NCBI RefSeq assembly: GCF_009746125.1
Contig: NZ_CP041352.1
Coordinates: 2,712,436 to 2,776,435, forward strand
DNA: 64,000 nucleotides
Source of the DNA: Casimicrobium huifangae
GTDB taxonomy: Bacteria; Pseudomonadota; Gammaproteobacteria; Burkholderiales; Casimicrobiaceae
Direction of reading: 5' to 3'
Below the pieces are notes generated by a model. It did no database searches and had not been told where the DNA came from. It worked only from the letters and a program-made list of their open reading frames with translations. The translations under genes were made by a program, and so were the position numbers. Positions 18,264 to 61,906 of this stretch are shown here, piece by piece; the stretch's first letter is position 1, and every line of letters begins with the position of its first letter.

Positions 18264-18385
18264 ATCAACTTTTCGTGAAAACGTCATTTCTGTATGGGCT
18301 ACAAGCTCGATTCTACCGAAAGTCGACTTGTAGCGATTTAGCTAATAAAGCCCAATTAAAATGCGCTTTTCGGCAAAAAGCCATA
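18264..18385. repeat. 122-bp dyad intergenic element, copy 1
   Basis: Reads ATCAACTTTT - 22 nt - GGGCT - 19 nt - AAGTCGACTT - 19 nt - AGCCC - 22 nt - AAAAGCCATA. The centre AAGTCGACTT (18320-18329) is a perfect palindrome. GGGCT (18296-18300) and AGCCC (18349-18353) are symmetric about it, as are the outer CTTTT and AAAAG. Two more copies with exactly the same spacing lie at 36253-36374 and 61577-61698. This copy lies between an exported-protein gene and the lipase gene. The rest of 18189-18591 holds no gene. Confidence 0.85.
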
Positions 18386-18591: not shown

Positions 18592-19542
18592 ATGTTCAGC
18601 ACTATTGGTGATCTGTTGGTCACCGGCCGCAGGCAATGTCGTCAGCTCGTTCTGGCCGCACTCATCACCCTCGTTGCCGGCGCCGCGCACGCCGGATACA
18701 CCACTACCCGCTACCCGATCGTGCTGATGCATGGAATGTCGGGCTTCGATCAGGTCGGTGCGGTCGATTACTTCTACGGCATTCCGCAGTCGCTGCGTGA
18801 CGGCGGTGCGCGCGTATTCGTGGCGCAGGTTTCCGCGTTCAGCAGTTCCGAGCAACGGGGCGAGCAGTTGCTGCAACAGGTGCGTAACGTACTGGCCATC
18901 ACCGGCGCGCAAAAGGTCAATCTGATCGGTCACTCGCACGGCAGTCAGACGGTGCGTTACGTCGCAGCGGTAGCGCCGGAGCTGGTCGCCTCGGTCACCG
19001 CTGTCGGCGGCCCGAACAAAGGCTCAAAAGTGGCGGACTTTGTCGACGCCAACCTGCGCGAGGGCTCGTGGCTGCGTGGCGTCGCGGCCGCCTTCATCAA
19101 CGCCTTCGGCCAGGTCATCAGTTTCCTCTCGGGTAGCACCGCCTACGAACAGAACGCAATTGCGGCGATGAAGTCGCTCACCACGTCAGGCTCGGCAGCA
19201 TTCAACGCCAAGTTTCCGCAGGCAATACCGACCAGCAGCTGCGGCGACGGCGCCAGCGTGGTGAACGGCATTCGCTACTACTCGTGGACCGGTGACCGCA
19301 ACCTCACCAATGTGTTCGACGTACTGGACGCACCGCTCGCCGTGCTTGGCCAGCTGCACGGTGCACAGAACGACGGACTGGTATCAGTGTGTTCGTCGAA
19401 ACTGGGCCAGTCACTCGGCGTCTACGCCCAGAACCATCTGGATGAGGTGAACCAGTTGCTCGGCTTCGTGGACCTCTTCTCGGTCAGTCCAAAGACGCTC
19501 TACCGCCAGCACGCCAACCGTCTGCAAGCGGCAGGCTTGTGA
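18592..19542 (+). CDS. Secreted triacylglycerol lipase (family I)
   Basis: A 316-aa lipase of the Pseudomonas/Burkholderia family I. The signal peptide ends at AAHA (34). The mature enzyme starts GYTTTRYPIVLMHG, with the oxyanion region in HGMSGFD. The nucleophile is Ser115 in GHSHGS, the acid Asp261 in AQNDGLV and the base His282 in NHLDEVNQ. Cys217 and Cys267 probably form the family disulfide. It would hydrolyse long-chain triglycerides outside the cell after type II secretion. It overlaps its foldase gene by four bases (GTGA). Confidence 0.93.
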   Translation: MFSTIGDLLVTGRRQCRQLVLAALITLVAGAAHAGYTTTRYPIVLMHGMSGFDQVGAVDYFYGIPQSLRDGGARVFVAQVSAFSSSEQRGEQLLQQVRNVLAITGAQKVNLIGHSHGSQTVRYVAAVAPELVASVTAVGGPNKGSKVADFVDANLREGSWLRGVAAAFINAFGQVISFLSGSTAYEQNAIAAMKSLTTSGSAAFNAKFPQAIPTSSCGDGASVVNGIRYYSWTGDRNLTNVFDVLDAPLAVLGQLHGAQNDGLVSVCSSKLGQSLGVYAQNHLDEVNQLLGFVDLFSVSPKTLYRQHANRLQAAGL

Positions 19543-32389: not shown

Positions 32390-32474
32390 GTCTGGTTGCC
32401 TTTGCTTTGCTTTGTTGCCAGCACTGAGTTACAAACTCGTCTGGCCTAACAAACTACCCAACTGCATGTGCAGT

Positions 32475-32559
<85 letters not shown>

Positions 32560-32576
32560 AATTCAGGCAAACCGAG

Positions 32577-32605
32577 ATTATAGATTGATAACGAAAAAAA
32601 CTCAA
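32577..32605 (-). promoter_or_regulatory. tRNA-Leu promoter, nested in the rnr 5' end
   Basis: The minus strand has TTGAGT (32600-32605), exactly 17 nt, then TATAAT (32577-32582), predicting a start near 32570, about 10 nt before the tRNA 5' end. This near-consensus sigma-70 promoter overlaps the proposed TTG start codon and first codons of rnr on the plus strand. Confidence 0.75.
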
Positions 32606-34936
32606 AAGACATCGACCCAAACTGCCAAAAAAGCAGGCAAAAGCACCTCACAGAAAGCGGTAAAGCCCACGTCCATCAAGGCGTCTGGCGCATCGAAAAA
32701 AAAGATTGCGGCAACGGCAAAGGCAGCCGCCGCAGTGCCTGCGAAAGTGAAGAAATCTGTTCAGGATGCTTCCGACGGGAAAAAGCGGCAACCTGCAGCG
32801 CCCAATCCATCAGTCAGCGCCGCATCGGCAAACGCCGCCGGTAAGACGACGGGGAAAACCAGTAAGTCCGCTGCAGTCAAGCCGGCTGCCCAGCCTCGCG
32901 CAAAGACTTCTGCGCAGAACGCGAACGCGTCGGGCGCCGCAAGTGCAGCGACCAAACGTAAAGCAGCACCCGGCGCAACGCCAGTCGCGGCCCGAAACGC
33001 GGTGGCGCCGCCCGCACCGGTGGTGCCGCCGAACGCGCTCGTCGGCACCATCATCGGCCACGCGGATGGCTACGGTTTCGTCAAGCTCGATCAGGGCGGC
33101 GACGACATCTTTCTCACCGAGGATGCGATGCGCGCCGTGCTGCATGGCGACCGCGTGGCCGTGCAGACCACCGGTACCACACGTGATGGCAAGACCACTG
33201 GCGAGATCGTCAGCATCCTGCAGCGGGCGAATCATCGGGTCGTCGGCAAGCTGCGCAGCAAGGATGGTGTGTGGTTCCTCGTCGCCTCGGAGCGCCGGAT
33301 CAATCAGGACATCGTTATCCCGCGCAACAAGCTGAGCACGGCCACGGTGAACCAGATCGTGGTCGTGGAGATCACCCGCCAGCCCACGCCGTACGACGAT
33401 GCGACTGGCGAGGTCGTGGAAGTGATTGGCGACGAGGATTCGTCCGACATTGAACTCGAAATCGCCATCCGCAAACACAATCTGCCTTACGTCTTCTCGC
33501 AGGCGACGCTGAAAGAAGCAGCGGCCTACGGCGACAAGGTGACGGCGGCCGACCGCAAGGGTCGTGTCGATCTGCGCGAGATGGCGCTGGTCACCATCGA
33601 TGGCGAGACTGCCAAGGACTTTGACGACGCCGTCTACGCCGAGAAGTCCGGACGCGGCTACCGGCTCGTAGTGGCGATTGCCGATGTGTCGCACTACGTC
33701 AAGCTCAACATGGCACTCGACGCCGATGCGCGCGAGCGCACCACTAGCGTCTACTTTCCGCGGCGCGTGATCCCGATGTTGCCCGAGGCGCTGTCGAACG
33801 AGCTGTGCAGCTTGCGGCCGAACGTGGATCGCCTGTGCATGGTCTGCGACATGAAGGTGAGCGCGGCCGGGCACATCACGGGCTTCGAGTTCTACGCCGC
33901 GGTGATGAACTCCAAGGCGCGGTTGACCTATACCGAAGTCGCCGCGCAATTGCCGACGCTGGAAGCGGCGAAGCCGAAAGCCGGCAGCATTGAAGCTTCG
34001 CTGAAGACACTCCATACCCTCTACAAACTGTTCCGCGAAGTTCGTGAACGGCGCGGTGCGCTTGATTTTGAAGGGCAGGAGGCGGTTTTCTCGTTCAATG
34101 ATGACGGCAGCGTTGCCAGCATTCGGCCAGCCGTGCGCAACGACGCGCACAAGCTGATCGAGGAGATGATGCTGGCGGCGAACGTCTGCACCGCGCAGTT
34201 CCTTGCTCGCGCCAAGCAGCCGCTGCTCTACCGGGTGCACGACGTCCCATTGCCAGAAAAGCTGGCGGCATTGCGTGAAACGCTGTCACTGCGCGGCCTG
34301 ACGCTAGGCGGCGGCGAACGACCATCGCCGAAGGACTACGCACTGCTGATCGAGCAGACGCGCGAACGCATCGATGCCCCCGCCCTGCATACCGTCCTGC
34401 TGCGCTCGCTGCCGCAGGCGATCTACACGCCACACAACGCGGGGCACTTTGGCCTGGCCTACGACCACTACGCGCACTTCACGTCGCCGATCCGCCGTTA
34501 CCCGGATCTGCTGGTGCACCGTGGTATCAAAGCCGTGCTGGCAGGCAAAAAGTACTCGAACGAAGACTGGGAACAGTTGGGCGATATGTGCAGCGCCAAC
34601 GAGCGCCGCGCGGACATTGCGTCACGCGAGGTCACCCAGTTCCTGAAGTCGAAATACCTAGAAGCGCACCTGGGTGAAGAGTTCAATGGCACCGTCTCCG
34701 GCGTGGTGCCGTTCGGGGCTTTCGTCACGCTGGACGAAACCTTCGCCGATGGCCTGATCCATGCCACCACGCTGCCGCGTGACTACTACGAACTGGGCCG
34801 CGACAAAGTGACGCTGGTCGGCCAGCGCAGCGGCTTCACGATCGCCCTTGGTGAACGAGTTCGCGTGAAGATCGCATCGGTCAATCCCGAGAATGCGAAG
34901 GTGGATTTCCAGTATGTTGGGCCGGCCGAGGCCTGA
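32585..34936 (+). CDS. rnr: Ribonuclease R with basic N-terminal extension
   Basis: A protein of about 783 aa. Residues 1-145 are low-complexity, rich in Lys, Ala, Ser and Thr. A cold-shock domain follows (GTIIGHADGYGFVKLD, about 154 on). The RNB exonuclease domain starts near 327, with ETAKDFDDAV and the Asp cluster for Mg2+. An S1 domain (about 697-778) ends the protein. It degrades structured RNA 3' to 5'. The basic tail normally at the C-terminus is absent; the basic segment is N-terminal instead. No ATG exists near the start: TTG at 32585 is proposed, with GTG at 32735 or 32747 as alternatives. Confidence 0.85.
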   Translation: MITKKTQKTSTQTAKKAGKSTSQKAVKPTSIKASGASKKKIAATAKAAAAVPAKVKKSVQDASDGKKRQPAAPNPSVSAASANAAGKTTGKTSKSAAVKPAAQPRAKTSAQNANASGAASAATKRKAAPGATPVAARNAVAPPAPVVPPNALVGTIIGHADGYGFVKLDQGGDDIFLTEDAMRAVLHGDRVAVQTTGTTRDGKTTGEIVSILQRANHRVVGKLRSKDGVWFLVASERRINQDIVIPRNKLSTATVNQIVVVEITRQPTPYDDATGEVVEVIGDEDSSDIELEIAIRKHNLPYVFSQATLKEAAAYGDKVTAADRKGRVDLREMALVTIDGETAKDFDDAVYAEKSGRGYRLVVAIADVSHYVKLNMALDADARERTTSVYFPRRVIPMLPEALSNELCSLRPNVDRLCMVCDMKVSAAGHITGFEFYAAVMNSKARLTYTEVAAQLPTLEAAKPKAGSIEASLKTLHTLYKLFREVRERRGALDFEGQEAVFSFNDDGSVASIRPAVRNDAHKLIEEMMLAANVCTAQFLARAKQPLLYRVHDVPLPEKLAALRETLSLRGLTLGGGERPSPKDYALLIEQTRERIDAPALHTVLLRSLPQAIYTPHNAGHFGLAYDHYAHFTSPIRRYPDLLVHRGIKAVLAGKKYSNEDWEQLGDMCSANERRADIASREVTQFLKSKYLEAHLGEEFNGTVSGVVPFGAFVTLDETFADGLIHATTLPRDYYELGRDKVTLVGQRSGFTIALGERVRVKIASVNPENAKVDFQYVGPAEA

Positions 34937-36252: not shown

Positions 36253-36374
36253 TTCGGCTTTTGTATGAAACCTTTATCTGCATTGGGTAAAGGGCGCAAT
36301 TTTCTATGAAGTCGACTTTTGTATCAAACGCGGTCTGAGCCCTTTAAGAATGGCTGTTTCGTCAAAAAGTTGAT
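36253..36374. repeat. 122-bp dyad intergenic element, copy 2
   Basis: Read on the minus strand: ATCAACTTTT (36365-36374) - 22 nt - GGGCT - 19 nt - AAGTCGACTT (36309-36318) - 19 nt - TACCC - 22 nt - AAAAGCCGAA (36253-36262). Block order and spacing are the same as in the other two copies; only the right inner block is degenerate (TACCC for AGCCC). It lies between the divergent carbonic-anhydrase-like and serB genes and could carry part of their promoters. Confidence 0.85.
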
Positions 36375-36416: not shown

Positions 36417-37121
36417 ATGACCTCAACTGCCGCTACCCATTCCTCGCCCGCCGCCAACGTACTGCCCGCTGACCGTGCCATCCCGATCACCCAGGTCGGG
36501 CTGATCGCGATGGACATGGATTCCACGGCCATCACCATCGAATGCATCGACGAAATTGCTGATTTCGCCGGCGTCAAGGCCGAGGTTTCCGCGATCACCG
36601 AGGCAGCCATGCGCGGCGAGCTGGATTTTCAGGCGAGTCTGAGAAAGCGGGTCGCCTGTCTCGAAGGCCTGTCCACCAAAGTGCTCGCCGAGGTCTACGC
36701 CGAGCGGCTGAAGCCCTCGCCCGGGCTCGCCGAGTTGATGGCCCATGCCAACAAAAACGGGGTGAAAACGCTACTCGTCTCCGGCGGCTTCACCTACTTC
36801 ACCGAGCGCATGCGGCAGCGCTTTGGCTACACCTGGACCCGCGCCAACACGCTGGCCGAACACGACGGCCGGCTTACCGGCAAGGTCTGCGGCGCCATCG
36901 TCGATGCGGTCGAAAAGGAGCGTCTGCTGCGCTTCTTTGCCAGCACGCTCCCGGCCGATCGCCGCGCCAGCATCGCACTCGGCGACGGCGCCAACGATTT
37001 GCCGATGCTTCACGCGGCAACGCTTGGGGTTGCCTATCACGCCAAACCGAAAGTGCGCGAGCAGGTGCCAGTGGCCATCAATATTGGCGGAATGGATACG
37101 CTTCTCGCGCTACTGCCCTGA
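36417..37121 (+). CDS. serB: Phosphoserine phosphatase
   Basis: A 234-aa HAD phosphatase. Motif I is AMDMDSTAI with the nucleophile Asp. Then come the cap ECIDEIADFAG, motif II VSGGFTYF, a conserved Lys, and motif III LGDGANDLPML. It makes serine from phosphoserine. The ATG at 36417 is preferred over a TTG at 36387. It starts about 43 nt after copy 2 of the 122-bp element. Confidence 0.93.
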   Translation: MTSTAATHSSPAANVLPADRAIPITQVGLIAMDMDSTAITIECIDEIADFAGVKAEVSAITEAAMRGELDFQASLRKRVACLEGLSTKVLAEVYAERLKPSPGLAELMAHANKNGVKTLLVSGGFTYFTERMRQRFGYTWTRANTLAEHDGRLTGKVCGAIVDAVEKERLLRFFASTLPADRRASIALGDGANDLPMLHAATLGVAYHAKPKVREQVPVAINIGGMDTLLALLP

Positions 37122-42785: not shown

Positions 42786-43383
42786 TTGCCTTATAATTTG
42801 CCTGTTGACGTAGTTCGAAGGAACTGCGGCATTTTGAATCCGGTGCACGGGTCCACGCCACCAACAGGCGCTTTCTGGGTGACTATCATGGAAAGTGCGG
42901 GCGAACAGAGGGTCAGCAATGATCCGCTTCGCGTCAGGTAAGCGGGATTCGCGCGGATTCCACGGTCAAGCCGCCACCGGGAAAAGCGGCGATTGTAAGA
43001 GTTCAGCCACCGCGCGGCGCCTTTCGTTGCTCGCTGGCCTGTGAAAAAAGATTGAAGCGGGGCCGCCCGATAACCAACGGCGAGTCCCAAGAAGAAAATT
43101 TCGTCATGAACCCGCGCAACAGCGCAACCAGCGTGAGCCTCCCGGTCAACGACCGGGCTCCCGCCCTGCCCACCCCGACAGCGACCGCGCCTCGCGCGTA
43201 CTCGTTGCCCCGGTTGTCTGGCCAGGTCAAGGTTCTGCCTCCCATCCGTCAGGCCACGATTTTTCTGTTCAGATCTATGCGCCCATTCTCGCCCGCGCTG
43301 CGCGCCGCGAGAATCGGTGACATTTCACTGGCTTAGCAGCATCCGTCTGGTTCACCGCTCGTTCGCTGAACGGGAAGGTACGC
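42786..43383. promoter_or_regulatory. Long rluC-rne intergenic region / rne leader
   Basis: About 600 bases between divergent genes. It contains a GACCGGG/CCCGGTC stem (43141-43157) and a perfect 8-bp stem ATTCTCGC/GCGAGAAT (43285-43292 with 43307-43314) enclosing an inner GCGC/GCGC pair. Position and length fit a structured 5' leader through which RNase E controls its own mRNA, as known in enterics. It also contains a possible small ORF (43106-43336). Confidence 0.55.
43106..43336 (+). CDS. Possible small ORF in the rne leader
   Basis: A 76-aa frame starting with ATG and rich in Pro, Ala and Arg ([19 protein letters not shown]...). It lies wholly within the presumed rne leader and contains both hairpins. 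It could be a leader peptide, but codon use is not convincing and no family was recognised. It ends 47 nt before rne. Confidence 0.25.
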
Positions 43384-46242
43384 ATGAAACGCATGCTGTT
43401 CAATGCAACCCAGTCGGAAGAACTGCGCGTTGCCATCGTCGATGGTCAGAAACTGATCGATCTCGACATCGAGTCTGCTTCCAAGGAGCAGCGCAAAAGC
43501 AACATCTACAAGGGCACCATCACGCGCGTCGAGCCGTCGCTGGAAGCCTGTTTCGTCGACTACGGCACCGAGCGCAACGGCTTCCTGCCATTCAAGGAAA
43601 TCGCACGCTCCGTGCTCTCCGGCGACGCTGATGTCAGCCGTAACAAGATCGGCGACAGCCTGAAGGTTGGCCAGGAACTGATCGTTCAGGTAGAGAAGGA
43701 CGAGCGTGGCAACAAGGGCGCCGCGCTGACCAGCTTCGTCTCGCTGGCCGGCCGTTATCTGGTGCTGATGCCTAATAACCCTCGCGGCGGCGGCGTATCG
43801 CGCCGCATCGAGGGCGAAGACCGCAACGAACTGCGTGACACCATGGCGCAGCTCGAAGTGCCTAACGGCATGAGCATCATCGCCCGCACCGCCGGTATTG
43901 GCCGTACCGCAGAAGAGCTGCAATGGGATCTGAACTACCTCCTGCAACTGTGGACCGCCATTGACGGTGCCGCCAAGGGCAACAAGGCACCGCTGCTGAT
44001 CTATCAGGAATCGAGCCTGGTGATTCGCGCCATCCGCGACTACTACACGCAGGACATCGGCGAGATCCTGATCGACACCGAAGACATCTTCGAGCAGGCC
44101 AAGGGCTTCATGGGCCATGTGATGCCCAACACGGTCAGCCGCGTCAAGCTCTATCACGACGATGTGCCGCTGTTCTCGCGCTTCCAGATCGAACACCAGA
44201 TCGAAAGCGCGTTCAGCCGCACGGTCAACCTGCCCTCGGGTGGCGCGATCGTCATCGACCACACCGAGGCGCTGGTCTCGATCGACGTCAACTCGGCACG
44301 CGCCACCAAAGGCGGCGACATCGAGACGACGGCGTTCAACACCAACCTCGAAGCGGCCGAAGAAGTCGCGCGCCAGTTGCGCCTGCGTGACCTCGGCGGC
44401 CTCGTCGTCGTGGACTTCATCGACATGGAGTCGTCCAAGCATCAGCGCGAAGTCGAAGACAAGCTCCGCGACGCGATGAAGCTCGACCGCGCCCGCGTGC
44501 AGCTGGGCAAGATCTCGCGCTTCGGCCTGATGGAGCTGTCGCGTCAGCGCCTGAAACCAAGCCTCGGCGAGTCGGCCCACCTGCCCTGCCCGCGCTGCCA
44601 CGGCACCGGCCACATCCGCTCGACCGAATCGATCGCGCTGCACATCCTGCGCATCATCCAGGAAGAGGCGATGAAGGACAACAGCGCGCAGGTCATCGCG
44701 CAAGTCCCGGTTGACGTCGCGACCTATCTGCTCAACGAGAAGCGATTCGACATCCAGTCGCTCGAGACGCGCCTCAAGGTCAGCGTGGTGCTGATCCCCA
44801 ACATGTACCTCGAGACGCCCAACTACACGGTGCAGCGTCTGAAGCACGACGAGCTCAACTCGGCCGAACCGCTTCCGACCAGCTACAAGATGGTCGAGCG
44901 TCCCGAGCAGGTTGATCCCGTCGAGGCGATCAAGCAGGAAGCCCACGAGGTTCGCGTCGAGGCTGCGGTCAAGGGCATCACGCCTGCGCAGCCGGCCCCG
45001 GTCGTCGAGCCGAAGCCGGAAACACCGGTTGCTGCTGCAGCACCTGTGGCGGTGGCGCCCATGCAAAAGGCTGGCCTTTGGGCGCGCGTGAAGTCGATCT
45101 TCGGCATTGAGGCTGCGGCACCGGTCGCTGAGCCACAACCCGCAAAGGCGGAAGAAAAGAAACGCGATGACCGCCGCGACGGTAACCGTGACCGTGGTGG
45201 TCGCAATGATCGCGGTGACCGCCGCGACCGCAATGACCGCAATGACCGTGGTGATCGCAAGGACCGCAACGGTAAAGGCGATCGCAACGAAAGTCGCGGT
45301 GATCGCGACAACCGTAGCGACCGGAAGGATCGTGGTGACGCTAAACGTGACGGCCGCACGGACGGCAACCGTCAGGGCGACCGCGCTCCGCGCGAGCAAC
45401 GCGAGCCGCGCGAACAGCGTGATGCACGCAATCAGGCCAATGCCGCCGAAGCGGTGACGCCGGGTGCCGGAGTGGTTGCAGGAGGCGCGGCCGACAGCAA
45501 CAAGGCTCCGCGCGAGAACCGTGAGAATCGCGAAAACCGCGGTGAACGCGGTGACCGTGGCGGGCGTCGTGAACGCGGCGAGCGCGGTGATCGCCCGCCG
45601 CGCGACGGCAACAATGCGCCGGCACCGCTGGTTGCAAACGCAGAAGCGCAAGCAGCTGACGTTCAACAGGCCACCAGCGCACAACCGCAAACGACAGTCG
45701 ATGGCACGTCGCAAGAACGTGGCGATCGTCCGCCGCGCGGCGAACGTGGTTCGCGTCGCCGCGATCGCGACAGCCGTGGCGAACGCGGCGAAAATGGTGA
45801 AGGTGGAGAAGGACGCCGCGAACGCGCAGCCACCGACAGTCAGGGTGATGCCGGTGTTGTAACCGCGCCGAAGGTGAACGAGGCGGCTGGTGGGGTGCAA
45901 GCGTCGATGTTCGATGCCGCGCCGGCGCCAGCAAGCGCCCCTGTATCTGCCCCAGCCCCGATGGCACCTGCGGCGCAAGTCGCAGCTCCTGCCGCACCGG
46001 CTGCGACTGCCGCCCCAGTGGCTGCACGCGAATCGGTGAAGCCCTTCACCTACCAGTTGCCCGGTGATGCTGGCTTGCAGATGATGGAAACCCGCAGCAG
46101 TGGCGCGCCGTCGCCCGCAGTGGCCGATGAACCGGTCAAGCGCGGTCGCGCACGCCCGCCGCGCGCCGAGGTTGCCGCCGAGCCAATGCAAATGGTAGAG
46201 ACCGGCAAACCGTCGGGACAACCCGAGACCGTACAGCAGTAG
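43384..46242 (+). CDS. rne: Ribonuclease E
   Basis: A 952-aa endoribonuclease. The catalytic half has an S1 domain ([22 protein letters not shown]), a 5'-sensor region, the DNase I-like metal site ([15 protein letters not shown] and VVDFIDME), and the Zn-link CPRCHGTG. The C-terminal half is disordered and Arg/Asp/Asn-rich (about 590-830), serving as an RNA-binding scaffold. It ends [16 protein letters not shown], a Burkholderiales-type terminal motif. It starts rRNA processing and mRNA decay. A GGGAAGG precedes the ATG. A strong terminator follows. Confidence 0.96.
45190..45345 (+). repeat. Degenerate Arg-Asp repeats inside rne
   Basis: Coding DNA made of near-repeats of CGCAATGACCGTGGTGATCG and variants, encoding units like DRGDR, DRND and RKDR. 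It forms the arginine-rich RNA-binding part of the RNase E scaffold. Such repeats are prone to length change by slippage. Confidence 0.7.
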
Positions 46243-46257
46243 CTCGCGACTCTGCAT

Positions 46258-46290
46258 GCAAAAGGCCCGCCCTCGCGGGCCTTTTGCTTT
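46258..46290 (+). terminator. Rho-independent terminator after rne
   Basis: GCAAAAGGCCCGC - CCTC - GCGGGCCTTTTGC (46258-46287), a 13-bp perfect stem followed by TTTTT, 15 nt after the stop codon. Confidence 0.93.
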
Positions 46291-46509
46291 TTGGCGGTAT
46301 CGCGCGCTTGGGGAACACGTCCTGCCGCCAGCTGCAACGTTAATCGTTTCACCGTTTGCGCTGATCGCCTGAAGACGCTTACGGCGCAGTACCGCCGTTC
46401 TGCCAGCCGCCACGCACTCATTGACCAAACGCAAATGGATCGCAGTTTGGACATTTCGCCATAGAGCAACGCTCAATGCGGGTGCTACTATGTTCAAGTG
46501 CATAAGACG

Positions 46510-61576: not shown

Positions 61577-61698
61577 ATCAACTTTTCAGGCTAAGCCGCA
61601 TTCACTTTGGGCTGAAAGCACACTTCGCCGACAAGTCGACTTTTATCACTTTCGTGGTCTTAGCCCACGTGCAACAAGGAGTTGATGAGAAAGCTGTC
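61577..61698. repeat. 122-bp dyad intergenic element, copy 3
   Basis: ATCAACTTTT (61577-61586) - 22 nt - GGGCT (61609-61613) - 19 nt - AAGTCGACTT (61633-61642) - 19 nt - AGCCC (61662-61666) - 22 nt - GAAAGCTGTC (61689-61698). All block spacings equal those of the other copies. The right end reaches the stop codon of iscX. It sits at the junction of the isc genes and the copper island. Confidence 0.85.
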
Positions 61699-61906
61699 AG
61701 TCCAGTTCATCGATCCACGCTTGCTGGATGGCCTCCAGAATGCGCTCACCGCAGTGCTTCGGGTCGTCGTCAAACTCGGGCAGCGCCAGCACCATGTCCA
61801 TCAGCGCCGTGAAGCGCACCTGCGCCGGATCCACATCAGGATGGGCGTCGGTGAGCTGGATCGCGATTTCCAGCGAATCGGTCCATTTGAGCTTGGGCGC
61901 AGCCAT
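61697..61906 (-). CDS. iscX: Fe-S assembly protein IscX
   Basis: A 69-aa acidic protein with the IscX signature: KLKWTDSLEIAIQL, HPDVDPAQVRFT, LPEFDDDP, and ending EAIQQAWIDEL. It binds IscS and iron and adjusts Fe-S cluster assembly. It overlaps the fdx stop by one base (TGATG), the standard end of the isc operon. Confidence 0.94.
   Translation of the reverse strand: MAAPKLKWTDSLEIAIQLTDAHPDVDPAQVRFTALMDMVLALPEFDDDPKHCGERILEAIQQAWIDELD

What the first reader, a model, noticed from the sequence alone, without database searches (positions are those of the whole stretch)
18264..18385. A 122-bp dyad-symmetric intergenic repeat family with exact block spacing
Three intergenic copies (18264-18385; 36253-36374, reversed; 61577-61698) share ATCAACTTTT, GGGCT and the palindrome AAGTCGACTT. 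Gaps are exactly 22 and 19 nt in each. The right half mirrors this: 19 nt, AGCCC (TACCC in copy 2), 22 nt, then an AAAG-containing block. Sequence between blocks has largely diverged, apart from weak GAAA and CATT positions inside the 22-nt arms. Conserved spacing with diverged filler suggests selection on a dyad, either as a protein-binding site array or a folded RNA, or else an old palindromic mobile element like ERIC (127 bp) or a MITE. I know of no named family with these blocks.
Basis: seen in the sequence. Interest (0 to 1): 0.8.

Follow-up and report, generated by a model that had tools for sequence, protein, structure and literature searches.

The report
Evenly spaced twin DNA docking sites
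A little-studied bacterium carries an estimated 400 copies of a 120-letter mirror-image DNA sign between its genes, one about every 11,000 letters; each copy appears to be kept in place by selection, which suggests fixed landmarks that organise the chromosome rather than junk or a jumping element.

Summary
The three copies are real (3 exact matches, 0 by chance) and belong to a large family. A 400-kb stretch of the same chromosome holds 37 matches at 34 bits or more and none between 8.5 and 34; scaled, about 400 per genome. The unit is a ~120-bp DNA dyad. It is not a folded RNA: no pairs are predicted, and in 96 copies the arms match no better than column frequencies predict (2930 vs 2887 of 5454). 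It shows no sign of recent mobility: no pair among 96 copies exceeds 71% identity and no target-duplication signal appears. It is kept in place: 11 of 11 testable gaps in a sister species hold one; blocks are kept while filler has largely diverged. Two unexpected properties: copies are spaced more evenly than chance in three species (3 of 144 spacings under 3 kb, 24.6 expected), and a close relative uses a different "dialect" of the middle block, seen at four shared sites. Best explanation: docking sites for an unidentified symmetric DNA-wrapping complex that divides the chromosome into ~11-kb units. The binder is unknown; nothing was tested at the bench.

The parts
18264..18385 (.). Dyad element, copy 1; dyad axis in AAGTC|GACTT at 18320-18329; between co-directional + genes, about 75 bp after a stop codon
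   Evidence: flanking genes by own gene finder
36253..36374 (.). Dyad element, copy 2; axis at 36309-36318; between divergent genes (hexapeptide-repeat protein; HAD-family, SerB-like by recall)
   Evidence: element upstream of the orthologous hexapeptide gene in G011 and G013 (second neighbour not checked there) and, in the other dialect and between both neighbours, in G012
61577..61698 (.). Dyad element, copy 3; axis at 61633-61642; outer end abuts the stop codon of an iscX-like gene (61697-61906, -)
   Evidence: element starting at the same stop codon in G012, G004, G005, G001, G015; in G011 a 68.8-bit hit in the same gap
18592..19542 (+). Gene downstream of copy 1: alpha/beta hydrolase (lipase-like); context only
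   Evidence: PF00561
35571..36095 (-). Gene beside copy 2: hexapeptide-repeat protein; context only
   Evidence: (PF00132)
36417..37121 (+). Gene beside copy 2: HAD phosphatase family; context only
   Evidence: (PF12710)
61697..61906 (-). Gene beside copy 3: iscX-like (name recalled from its sequence, no call names it); context only

Best explanation
Each copy is a DNA-level docking site, about 120 bp long and two-fold symmetric, for a large symmetric protein complex that contacts the DNA at about six places per arm and probably bends or wraps it. Roughly 400 such sites, kept in place by selection and spaced about 11-12 kb apart, act as fixed landmarks that divide the chromosome into small units, most likely as barriers or topoisomerase/condensin docking points for supercoil domains. 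SHOWN here: a DNA dyad with independently evolving arms, no RNA pairing, in-place conservation of blocks over largely diverged filler, intergenic placement, over-even spacing, and a dialect difference between species. INFERRED: that a protein complex binds; that it is one complex; that the function is chromosome organisation or supercoiling. The binder is unidentified; DNA gyrase is one candidate, by length and symmetry only.
For: Arms mirror each other only in consensus: 2930 matches vs 2887.2 expected of 5454, filler columns 838 vs 822.5 of 2586; 1011 vs 1002.8 of 1906 in the 34 elements from stretches taken without regard to the motif. About 45 bits per half, 43.9 in the unbiased 34. The strongest couplings are between bases at most three apart, with A-tract-like AA/AT/TT but few TA at -14/-13 (6 of 185), as in indirect DNA readout. 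0 of 96 elements lie inside a predicted gene; for 95 both neighbours were placed, median 21 bp from a flanking stop and 132 bp from a flanking start codon. In-place conservation: 11 of 11 testable gaps in G011 hold a hit above 10 bits, lowest 26.3; one is split at its axis by a 198-bp insert. Between orthologues block columns are 85% identical (350 of 412; 84% between non-orthologues) while filler has fallen to 42% (187 of 446; 31% between non-orthologues). Score gap in G000: nothing between 8.5 and 34.3 bits in 400 kb. Spacing: G000 CV 0.51 vs 0.86 simulated, G011 0.63 vs 0.88, G012 0.60 vs 0.87; pooled 3 of 144 spacings under 3 kb vs 24.6 expected, none of 2000 simulations as even; holds at three other settings. 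Density of about 385-415 per genome is close to the 400-500 supercoil domains and 10-kb domain size reported for enterobacteria (passages of PMC3420936).
Against: No binding protein was identified and no experiment exists. Even spacing (recalled) and dialects are also known of DNA-uptake sequences. Random placement of supercoil barriers is described as commonly observed in E. coli (passage of PMC6907758). The element's GC periodicity peaks at 7.5-8 and 9.75-10 bp, not at the 10.75 bp of the E. coli gyrase motif. G012 holds an element in only 3 of 6 testable gaps, plus the iscX site. Filler between orthologues is not fully randomised, and a few pairs (for example L053) keep long identical stretches; flanking intergenic DNA was aligned but not scored. 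27 of 143 centre-reaching arms lack an in-register partner of 4 bits or more, about ten of them with none by eye, so full symmetry is not always needed. G011 has 13 hits of 10-30 bits, so decay is not absent there. With the simplest null, two of six contigs are not individually significant (P 0.12 and 0.086). The gene finder was home-made.
Confidence: 0.55

Rival explanations
1. Outsized DNA-uptake or other molecular-drive sequence: copies persist because DNA carrying them is preferentially taken up and recombined, not because each site helps the host.
For: Neisseriaceae uptake sequences have lineage dialects and can form dyad pairs (passages of PMC3630211). The family here was found only in this genus, has dialects and is evenly spaced.
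Against: About 90 bits over 120 bp, far beyond the short uptake sequences I recall (9-12 bp cores; not from a call). 0 of 96 sites lie inside genes, whereas the paper saw no obvious preference inside or outside coding sequence for the paired uptake sequences of S. muelleri. 116 of 143 strong arms have an in-register partner. No competence genes were looked for.
Confidence: 0.12
2. Ancient MITE/REPIN-like mobile repeat whose copies are passively retained.
For: Size and palindromic, intergenic habit resemble ERIC (127 bp; section read of PMC2229807). Y1-type transposase genes occur in 15 of 17 genomes of the genus. 3 of 6 testable gaps in G012 lack an element (68).
Against: Highest pairwise identity among 96 copies 68% (MAFFT) or 71% (model-aligned, both orientations). 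No target-duplication signal. 11 of 11 testable gaps occupied in G011. No element of 10 bits or more at the 20 of 44 Y1 places that were fetched, only one of the four G000 places among them and with a model that suits other dialects poorly. G008 has elements but no Y1 match. Over-even spacing. Blocks kept while filler diverges. Other transposase families were not searched.
Confidence: 0.1
3. The binder is DNA gyrase itself (a special case of the best explanation): each copy is an optimised gyrase site.
For: The E. coli gyrase motif is 130 bp and symmetric about the cleavage site, with a central part and two wings ending at -63/+66 (passages of PMC6379681); this element is symmetric with conserved positions out to about 61 bp from the axis. 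Placement near gene 3' ends. Gyrase cleavage sites are over-represented in BIME-2 repeats.
Against: Periodicity is 7.5-8 and about 10 bp rather than 10.75. The element is far more sequence-specific than the degenerate gyrase motif, and the dialect difference would require gyrase to change specificity.
Confidence: 0.15
4. Operator of a very large gene regulon.
For: Long dyad with dialects, as transcription-factor sites can show.
Against: Sites occur in every gene arrangement: 49 co-directional, 27 divergent, 19 convergent of 95; no promoter is expected in the 19 convergent gaps. Regular spacing is not expected of a regulon.
Confidence: 0.06
5. Folded RNA or terminator.
For: A few copies have a terminator-like centre by eye (L019; L048).
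Against: 0 predicted pairs on 55 and 28 copies; arms independent; no distant complementary coupling among the 20 strongest pairs; separate terminator-like hairpins follow the element after iscX in G004, G005 and G015 (sequence, read by eye).
Confidence: 0.02

Closest known systems
BIME/REP elements of enterobacteria (gyrase-bound, proposed supercoil barriers)
   Same: Hundreds of intergenic palindromic copies; ~600 BIMEs proposed as possibly dividing the E. coli chromosome (passage of PMC6907758)
   Different: REPs are 20-40 bp palindromes (abstract start of PMC3733652, listing); this is a ~120-bp DNA dyad whose arms do not pair, spaced over-evenly
E. coli DNA gyrase motif
   Same: About 130 bp, symmetric, central block plus two wings (passages)
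   Different: Gyrase motif is degenerate with a 10.75-bp GC period; this is sequence-specific (~90 bits) with other periods
ERIC / IRU / RU-1
   Same: 127-bp intergenic repeat, many copies
   Different: ERIC is described there as a MITE acting on mRNA stability in an orientation-dependent way; this shows no RNA pairing, no near-identical copies, no target-duplication signal
DNA uptake sequence dialects of Neisseriaceae
   Same: Lineage dialects, dyad pairs in some species (passages); betaproteobacterial hosts (recalled)
   Different: Short (recalled), also within coding DNA; here ~120 bp and 0 of 96 within genes
REPINs
   Same: Populations said to persist in genomes for millions of years (abstract and passages of PMC8049555); inverted pairs (recalled)
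   Different: REPINs are described as nonautonomous transposable elements duplicated by RAYTs and modelled by few-base distance from a master sequence; here mean pairwise identity is 51-52%

Membership tests
MITE / ERIC-like mobile element | Near-identical or recently duplicated copies | tested here: not met
   96 copies: mean identity 51%, maximum 68%; 71% at most when model-aligned in both orientations; all 26 entries dropped as identical were the same genomic place fetched twice
MITE / ERIC-like mobile element | Target-site duplication | tested here: not met
   Best excess 11 vs 5.8 at k = 2 over 144 offset pairs, nothing for k >= 7, not corrected for the many offsets; no clean empty site was available
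MITE / ERIC-like mobile element | Presence/absence polymorphism between relatives | tested here: inconclusive
   11 of 11 gaps occupied in G011; 3 of 6 in G012
REPIN / RAYT system | Linked RAYT (Y1) transposase | tested here: inconclusive
   20 of 44 Y1_Tnp places scanned, best element score 9.9 bits, only one of four G000 places included; G008 has elements but no Y1_Tnp match
REPIN / RAYT system | Hairpin-forming arms | tested here: not met
Structured RNA family | Conserved base pairing with covariation | tested here: not met
   0 pairs; arms independent; only a tRNA found by Rfam in the window
DNA gyrase site | ~130-bp symmetric footprint | tested here: met
   conserved columns to about +-61 against wings ending -63/+66
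DNA gyrase site | 10.75-bp periodic GC in the wings | tested here: not met
   power at 10.75 below the permutation threshold; peaks at 7.5-8 and, over the longer ranges, 9.75-10
DNA gyrase site | Cleavage by gyrase at the axis | not testable with these tools
   needs Topo-Seq
Supercoil-domain barrier | Copy number and spacing on the domain scale (~10 kb, 400-500) | tested here: met
   mean spacing 11.6-12.8 kb in three species, over-even; domain figures
Supercoil-domain barrier | Blocks supercoil diffusion | not testable with these tools
   bench assay needed
DNA uptake sequence | Promotes uptake; found in coding and non-coding DNA | tested here: inconclusive
   uptake not testable here; 0 of 96 inside genes

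The most novel reading that the evidence does not exclude
A genus-specific, sequence-encoded chromosome-partition system: about 400 fixed, 120-bp two-fold-symmetric sites at near-regular ~11-kb intervals, read by an unknown DNA-wrapping complex whose recognition of the middle block has switched between species, so that hundreds of sites changed dialect together while many stayed at the same loci.
Probability: 0.4. Interest if true: 0.93.

Novelty: categorically new. Interest (0 to 1): 0.82.

Why it matters
What forms supercoil-diffusion barriers in bacteria is listed as an open question (passage of PMC6907758). A bacterium whose chromosome appears to carry hundreds of fixed, sequence-recognisable, evenly spaced sites would let that question be tested directly: find the binder, remove single sites, watch the domains. 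The dialect difference across many loci would also be a rare natural experiment in co-evolution of a chromosome-wide DNA-binding system.

Tried and rejected
RNA fold: rejected. A full-length parent transposon with half-elements as its terminal repeats: single arms were listed and revisited with more data. 116 of 143 strong centre-reaching arms have an in-register partner; many of the other 27 have a degenerate one by eye, and about ten have none. No insert is common to all of these. Two pairs share sequence beyond the axis: G011 C79:84367 with C16:20904 (80% over 120 bp, apparently another dispersed repeat) and G000 2972707 with G011 C4:21733 (92% over 90 bp, perhaps orthologues). One G011 element is split at its axis by a 198-bp insert that is itself partly inverted and shares pieces with sequence beside another single arm; the orthologous G000 copy is intact. 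RAYT link: no support, but only 20 of 44 Y1 places were scanned; other transposase families were not searched. Gyrase periodicity: not met. Target-site duplication: no signal. Viral carriage: 7 viral contigs matched a pattern with 15 fixed bases; the best model score was 21.8 bits over part of one arm, about what the pattern itself guarantees, so treated as chance. The scan of those loci read an empty file and was repeated. Organism name: I suspected Casimicrobium (recalled); searches did not establish it, so it is not claimed. The first conserved-column script failed and was fixed. The spacing test was first run with a simple null, then with a null weighted by gap size and gene orientation, then at three thresholds/merging settings with an unweighted null.

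Rows dropped before counts: L005 and L047 (look like chance hits in coding sequence, by eye), and L007, L010, L011, L015 and L067 (poorer in-register fit by eye), were left out of the 55-row model. Elements of 110 bp or less or under 30 bits were left out of the 96, and 26 repeat fetches of the same places were removed (checked). The 96 are biased toward the exact centre, because many were fetched by it (66 of 96 have it, against 8 of 34 in the unselected stretches). One of the 96 had a neighbour missing at the locus edge. In one search, window copies 2 and 3 were not among the 11 G011 pairs because duplicate loci of the same genes blocked the adjacency test; they are described separately. Whole-genome counts are capped at 150 scored candidates per genome and are lower bounds. 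The G012 score gap is from a model trained on those same elements.

Full report
THE OBSERVATION. The three window copies are exact as described (three matches, none in 100 shuffles). A sequence-only model built from 55 copies in the same genome finds these three on both strands at 64.8-72.5 bits and nothing else in the window at E <= 1. The window lies at 2712436-2776435 of a single-contig 4,465,898-bp genome, G000. Named records with the exact pattern come from two MAGs, a 'Proteobacteria' isolate SZAS-69 and a 'Betaproteobacteria' lab-scale-reactor MAG. The genus was not identified.

FAMILY SIZE. AAGTCGACTT occurs 101 times in G000 against 2 for the reversed control, but most copies lack the exact centre: it is exact in 8 of 34 full elements in the stretches taken without regard to it. 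In one contiguous 400-kb stretch there are 38 hits above 5 bits: 37 at 34.3 bits or more and one at 8.5; a few of the 37 are shorter than full length. That scales to about 400 per genome (inference). The window, with 3 in 64 kb, is poorer than average.

ANATOMY. Pooling both arms of 96 elements, each half reads, from the outer end to the axis, CAGCTTTT-N4-GAAA-N-CC-N-CATT-N2-A-N2-TGGGCT ... C ... AAAT ... C ... AAAGTC. Conserved information is about 45 bits per half. In the 34 unselected elements it is 43.9 bits (small-sample corrected), with C at -56, G at -28 and T at -2 invariant.

NOT RNA, NOT A HAIRPIN. RNAalifold predicts no pair on 55 G000 copies or 28 G012 copies. If the dyad served pairing, left and right bases of the same copy would match more often than column frequencies predict; they do not (2930 observed, 2887.2 expected, of 5454; filler columns 838 vs 822.5 of 2586; in the 34 unselected elements 1011 vs 1002.8 of 1906). 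Among 186 half-elements, the 20 strongest couplings all join bases at most three apart, such as A/T runs at -15 to -12 with few TA steps. The two arms evolve independently toward the same half-site, as expected for a DNA site read by a symmetric protein assembly.

NO SIGN OF RECENT MOBILITY. Among 96 copies mean pairwise identity is 51% and the maximum 68%, or 71% when aligned to the model in both orientations; the 26 removed duplicates were all repeat fetches of one place. Local blastn matches are short (best 86% over 50 bp). There is no target-duplication signal. Y1-type transposase genes exist in 15 of 17 genus genomes; none of the 20 places fetched, of 44, has an element at 10 bits or more nearby, a partial test. 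G008 has elements but no such gene.

PLACEMENT. With a home-made gene finder, 0 of 96 elements lie inside a gene. For 95 both neighbours were placed: 49 between co-directional, 27 between divergent and 19 between convergent genes; the background of gaps of 130 bp or more is 97, 56 and 18. Median distance is 21 bp to a flanking stop codon (some overlap it, to -51) and 132 bp to a flanking start codon. Copy 3 begins at the stop codon of an iscX-like gene.

KEPT IN PLACE. At that stop codon the same kind of element starts in G012, G004, G005, G001 and G015 (the G004 copy scores only 11.5 bits with the G000 model), and G011 has a 68.8-bit hit in the same gap. G013 has no hit for the neighbouring gene. 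In G006 the gap is readable and shows no clear element. For G014, G007, G010, G002, G003, G009, G016 the script did not find the gene and for G008 it placed no iscX; the G000 model finds nothing strong in those loci, but it is a poor model for G007 and G003. Of 96 G000 elements, 11 had both neighbours adjacent in the G011 sequence held (1.2 Mb); 11 of 11 of those gaps contain a hit above 10 bits (lowest 26.3), one being the copy split by a 198-bp insert. In these pairs block columns are 85% identical, as between unrelated copies (84%), while filler columns are 42% identical against 31% for unrelated copies. Filler has thus lost most of its shared ancestry, although a few pairs such as L053 keep long identical stretches, while blocks sit at a family-wide level. 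I read this as purifying selection on each copy where it stands; a passive relic would not behave so. Flanking intergenic DNA was not scored.

DIALECTS. G012 is close to G000 by two proteins (97% and 91% identity), yet in 384 kb its elements score only about 5-21 bits with the G000 model. A G012-trained model finds 29 elements there at 57.8-86.7 bits, with the next hit at 7.7 (the model was trained on these). Outer CAGCTTTTT, inner A/T run and AAGTC|GACTT are shared, but the middle reads CGACCGTC..CGGTCGTT instead of CC.CATT..TGGGCT. Three of six testable orthologous gaps and the iscX site carry an element in both species; window copies 2 and 3 are two of these four. Across the genus the G012 model scores best in G012, G007 and G003 (best E 4.8e-23, 2.6e-22, 9.7e-21), where the G000 model gives 4.9e-13, 2.0e-7 and 9.7e-10. 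In G000, G011 and G013 the G000 model gives 1.4e-22, 6.6e-23 and 3.8e-22 and the G012 model 8.8e-14, 3.8e-17 and 4.4e-11. G007 and G003 are much further from G000 than G012 is (68% and 69% against 97%), so dialect does not simply follow protein similarity; no tree was built. In G006, G010, G014 and G002 matches are few and weak, and those read suggest a different centre (one or two loci each, tentative).

RANGE. With the G000 model, 15 of 17 genus genomes match at E <= 0.001 and 16 of 17 at E <= 0.01, against 0 of 47 genomes of other genera in the family. In an order-wide sample of 200 genomes, 4 match at E <= 1e-4, all of this genus. Both wide searches used stricter filters that lose weak matches.

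EVEN SPACING. Placing the same number of elements at random in real intergenic gaps, weighted by gap size and gene orientation, gives spacing CVs of 0.86 (G000), 0.88 (G011) and 0.87 (G012); observed values are 0.51, 0.63 and 0.60 (simulations as even: 0 of 2000, 0 of 2000, P 0.0165). Pooled, 3 of 144 spacings are under 3 kb against 24.6 expected and 16 under 5 kb against 44.2; no simulation was as even. Three other threshold/merging settings give the same result (2 to 4 spacings under 3 kb against 24.5 to 28.1). With the simplest null, contig by contig, all six contigs are more even than the mean simulation, two of them not significantly (P 0.12, 0.086). Elements occupy 19-27% of gaps of 125 bp or more.

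MECHANISM. The sites are long, symmetric, rich in short A/T tracts, intergenic, individually maintained and regularly spaced. Regular spacing on the scale of 11-12 kb argues for a role in a stretch of chromosome, not in a neighbouring gene. I propose a docking site for a symmetric DNA-wrapping complex that sets or polices small topological domains; reported domain numbers (400-500) and size (10 kb) in enterobacteria are close (passages of PMC3420936). Gyrase is attractive because its motif is 130 bp and symmetric (passages of PMC6379681), but the expected 10.75-bp periodicity is not met. The serious rival is a molecular-drive sequence such as an outsized DNA-uptake signal, because those also have dialects (passages of PMC3630211).

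LIMITS. No binder, no expression data, no experiment. The G000 total is scaled from 464 kb. Gene calls are home-made. Most relatives are fragmented assemblies. Of the held papers, 80 contain the string AAGTCGACTT; only the 10 listed were seen, by title and start of abstract, and none looks to be about a bacterial repeat. Literature novelty rests only.

Noticed in passing
G011 contig C79 196057-196386 (L214): A dyad element split near its axis by a 198-bp insert with its own inverted repeats; related pieces lie beside another single arm in G011 (L218, near 5100). The element axis may be a target for a second small repeat.
   Followed up: partly
window 43333-46503: Two very long ORFs on opposite strands overlap almost completely (952 aa on +, 1056 aa on -); the - ORF has no Pfam hit and the gene finder prefers the + one.
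   Followed up: no
G000 2972705, 3060534, 3129713 (in L194, L199, L202): Single arms (half elements) that end at the dyad axis; the first may have an orthologous single arm in G011 contig C4 near 21733 (92% over 90 bp of sequence beyond the axis), so the half state itself may be conserved.
   Followed up: partly
window 32478-32559 (-): A tRNA gene overlaps the start of a long ORF on the other strand (32468-34936; the gene finder starts that gene at 33002).
   Followed up: no
L120 (G006), L121 and L136 (G010), L122 (G014): Weak family members with the outer blocks but a different centre (for example AAGTTAATGA...TTAACTT in L122) instead of AAGTCGACTT; possibly a further dialect in the more distant part of the genus.
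   Followed up: partly
G011 C79 near 84367 and C16 near 20904 (L209, L219): A different dispersed repeat (80% identical over 120 bp, containing a stretch like GTCATCCTGAGC) lies just beyond the axis of two single arms.
   Followed up: no
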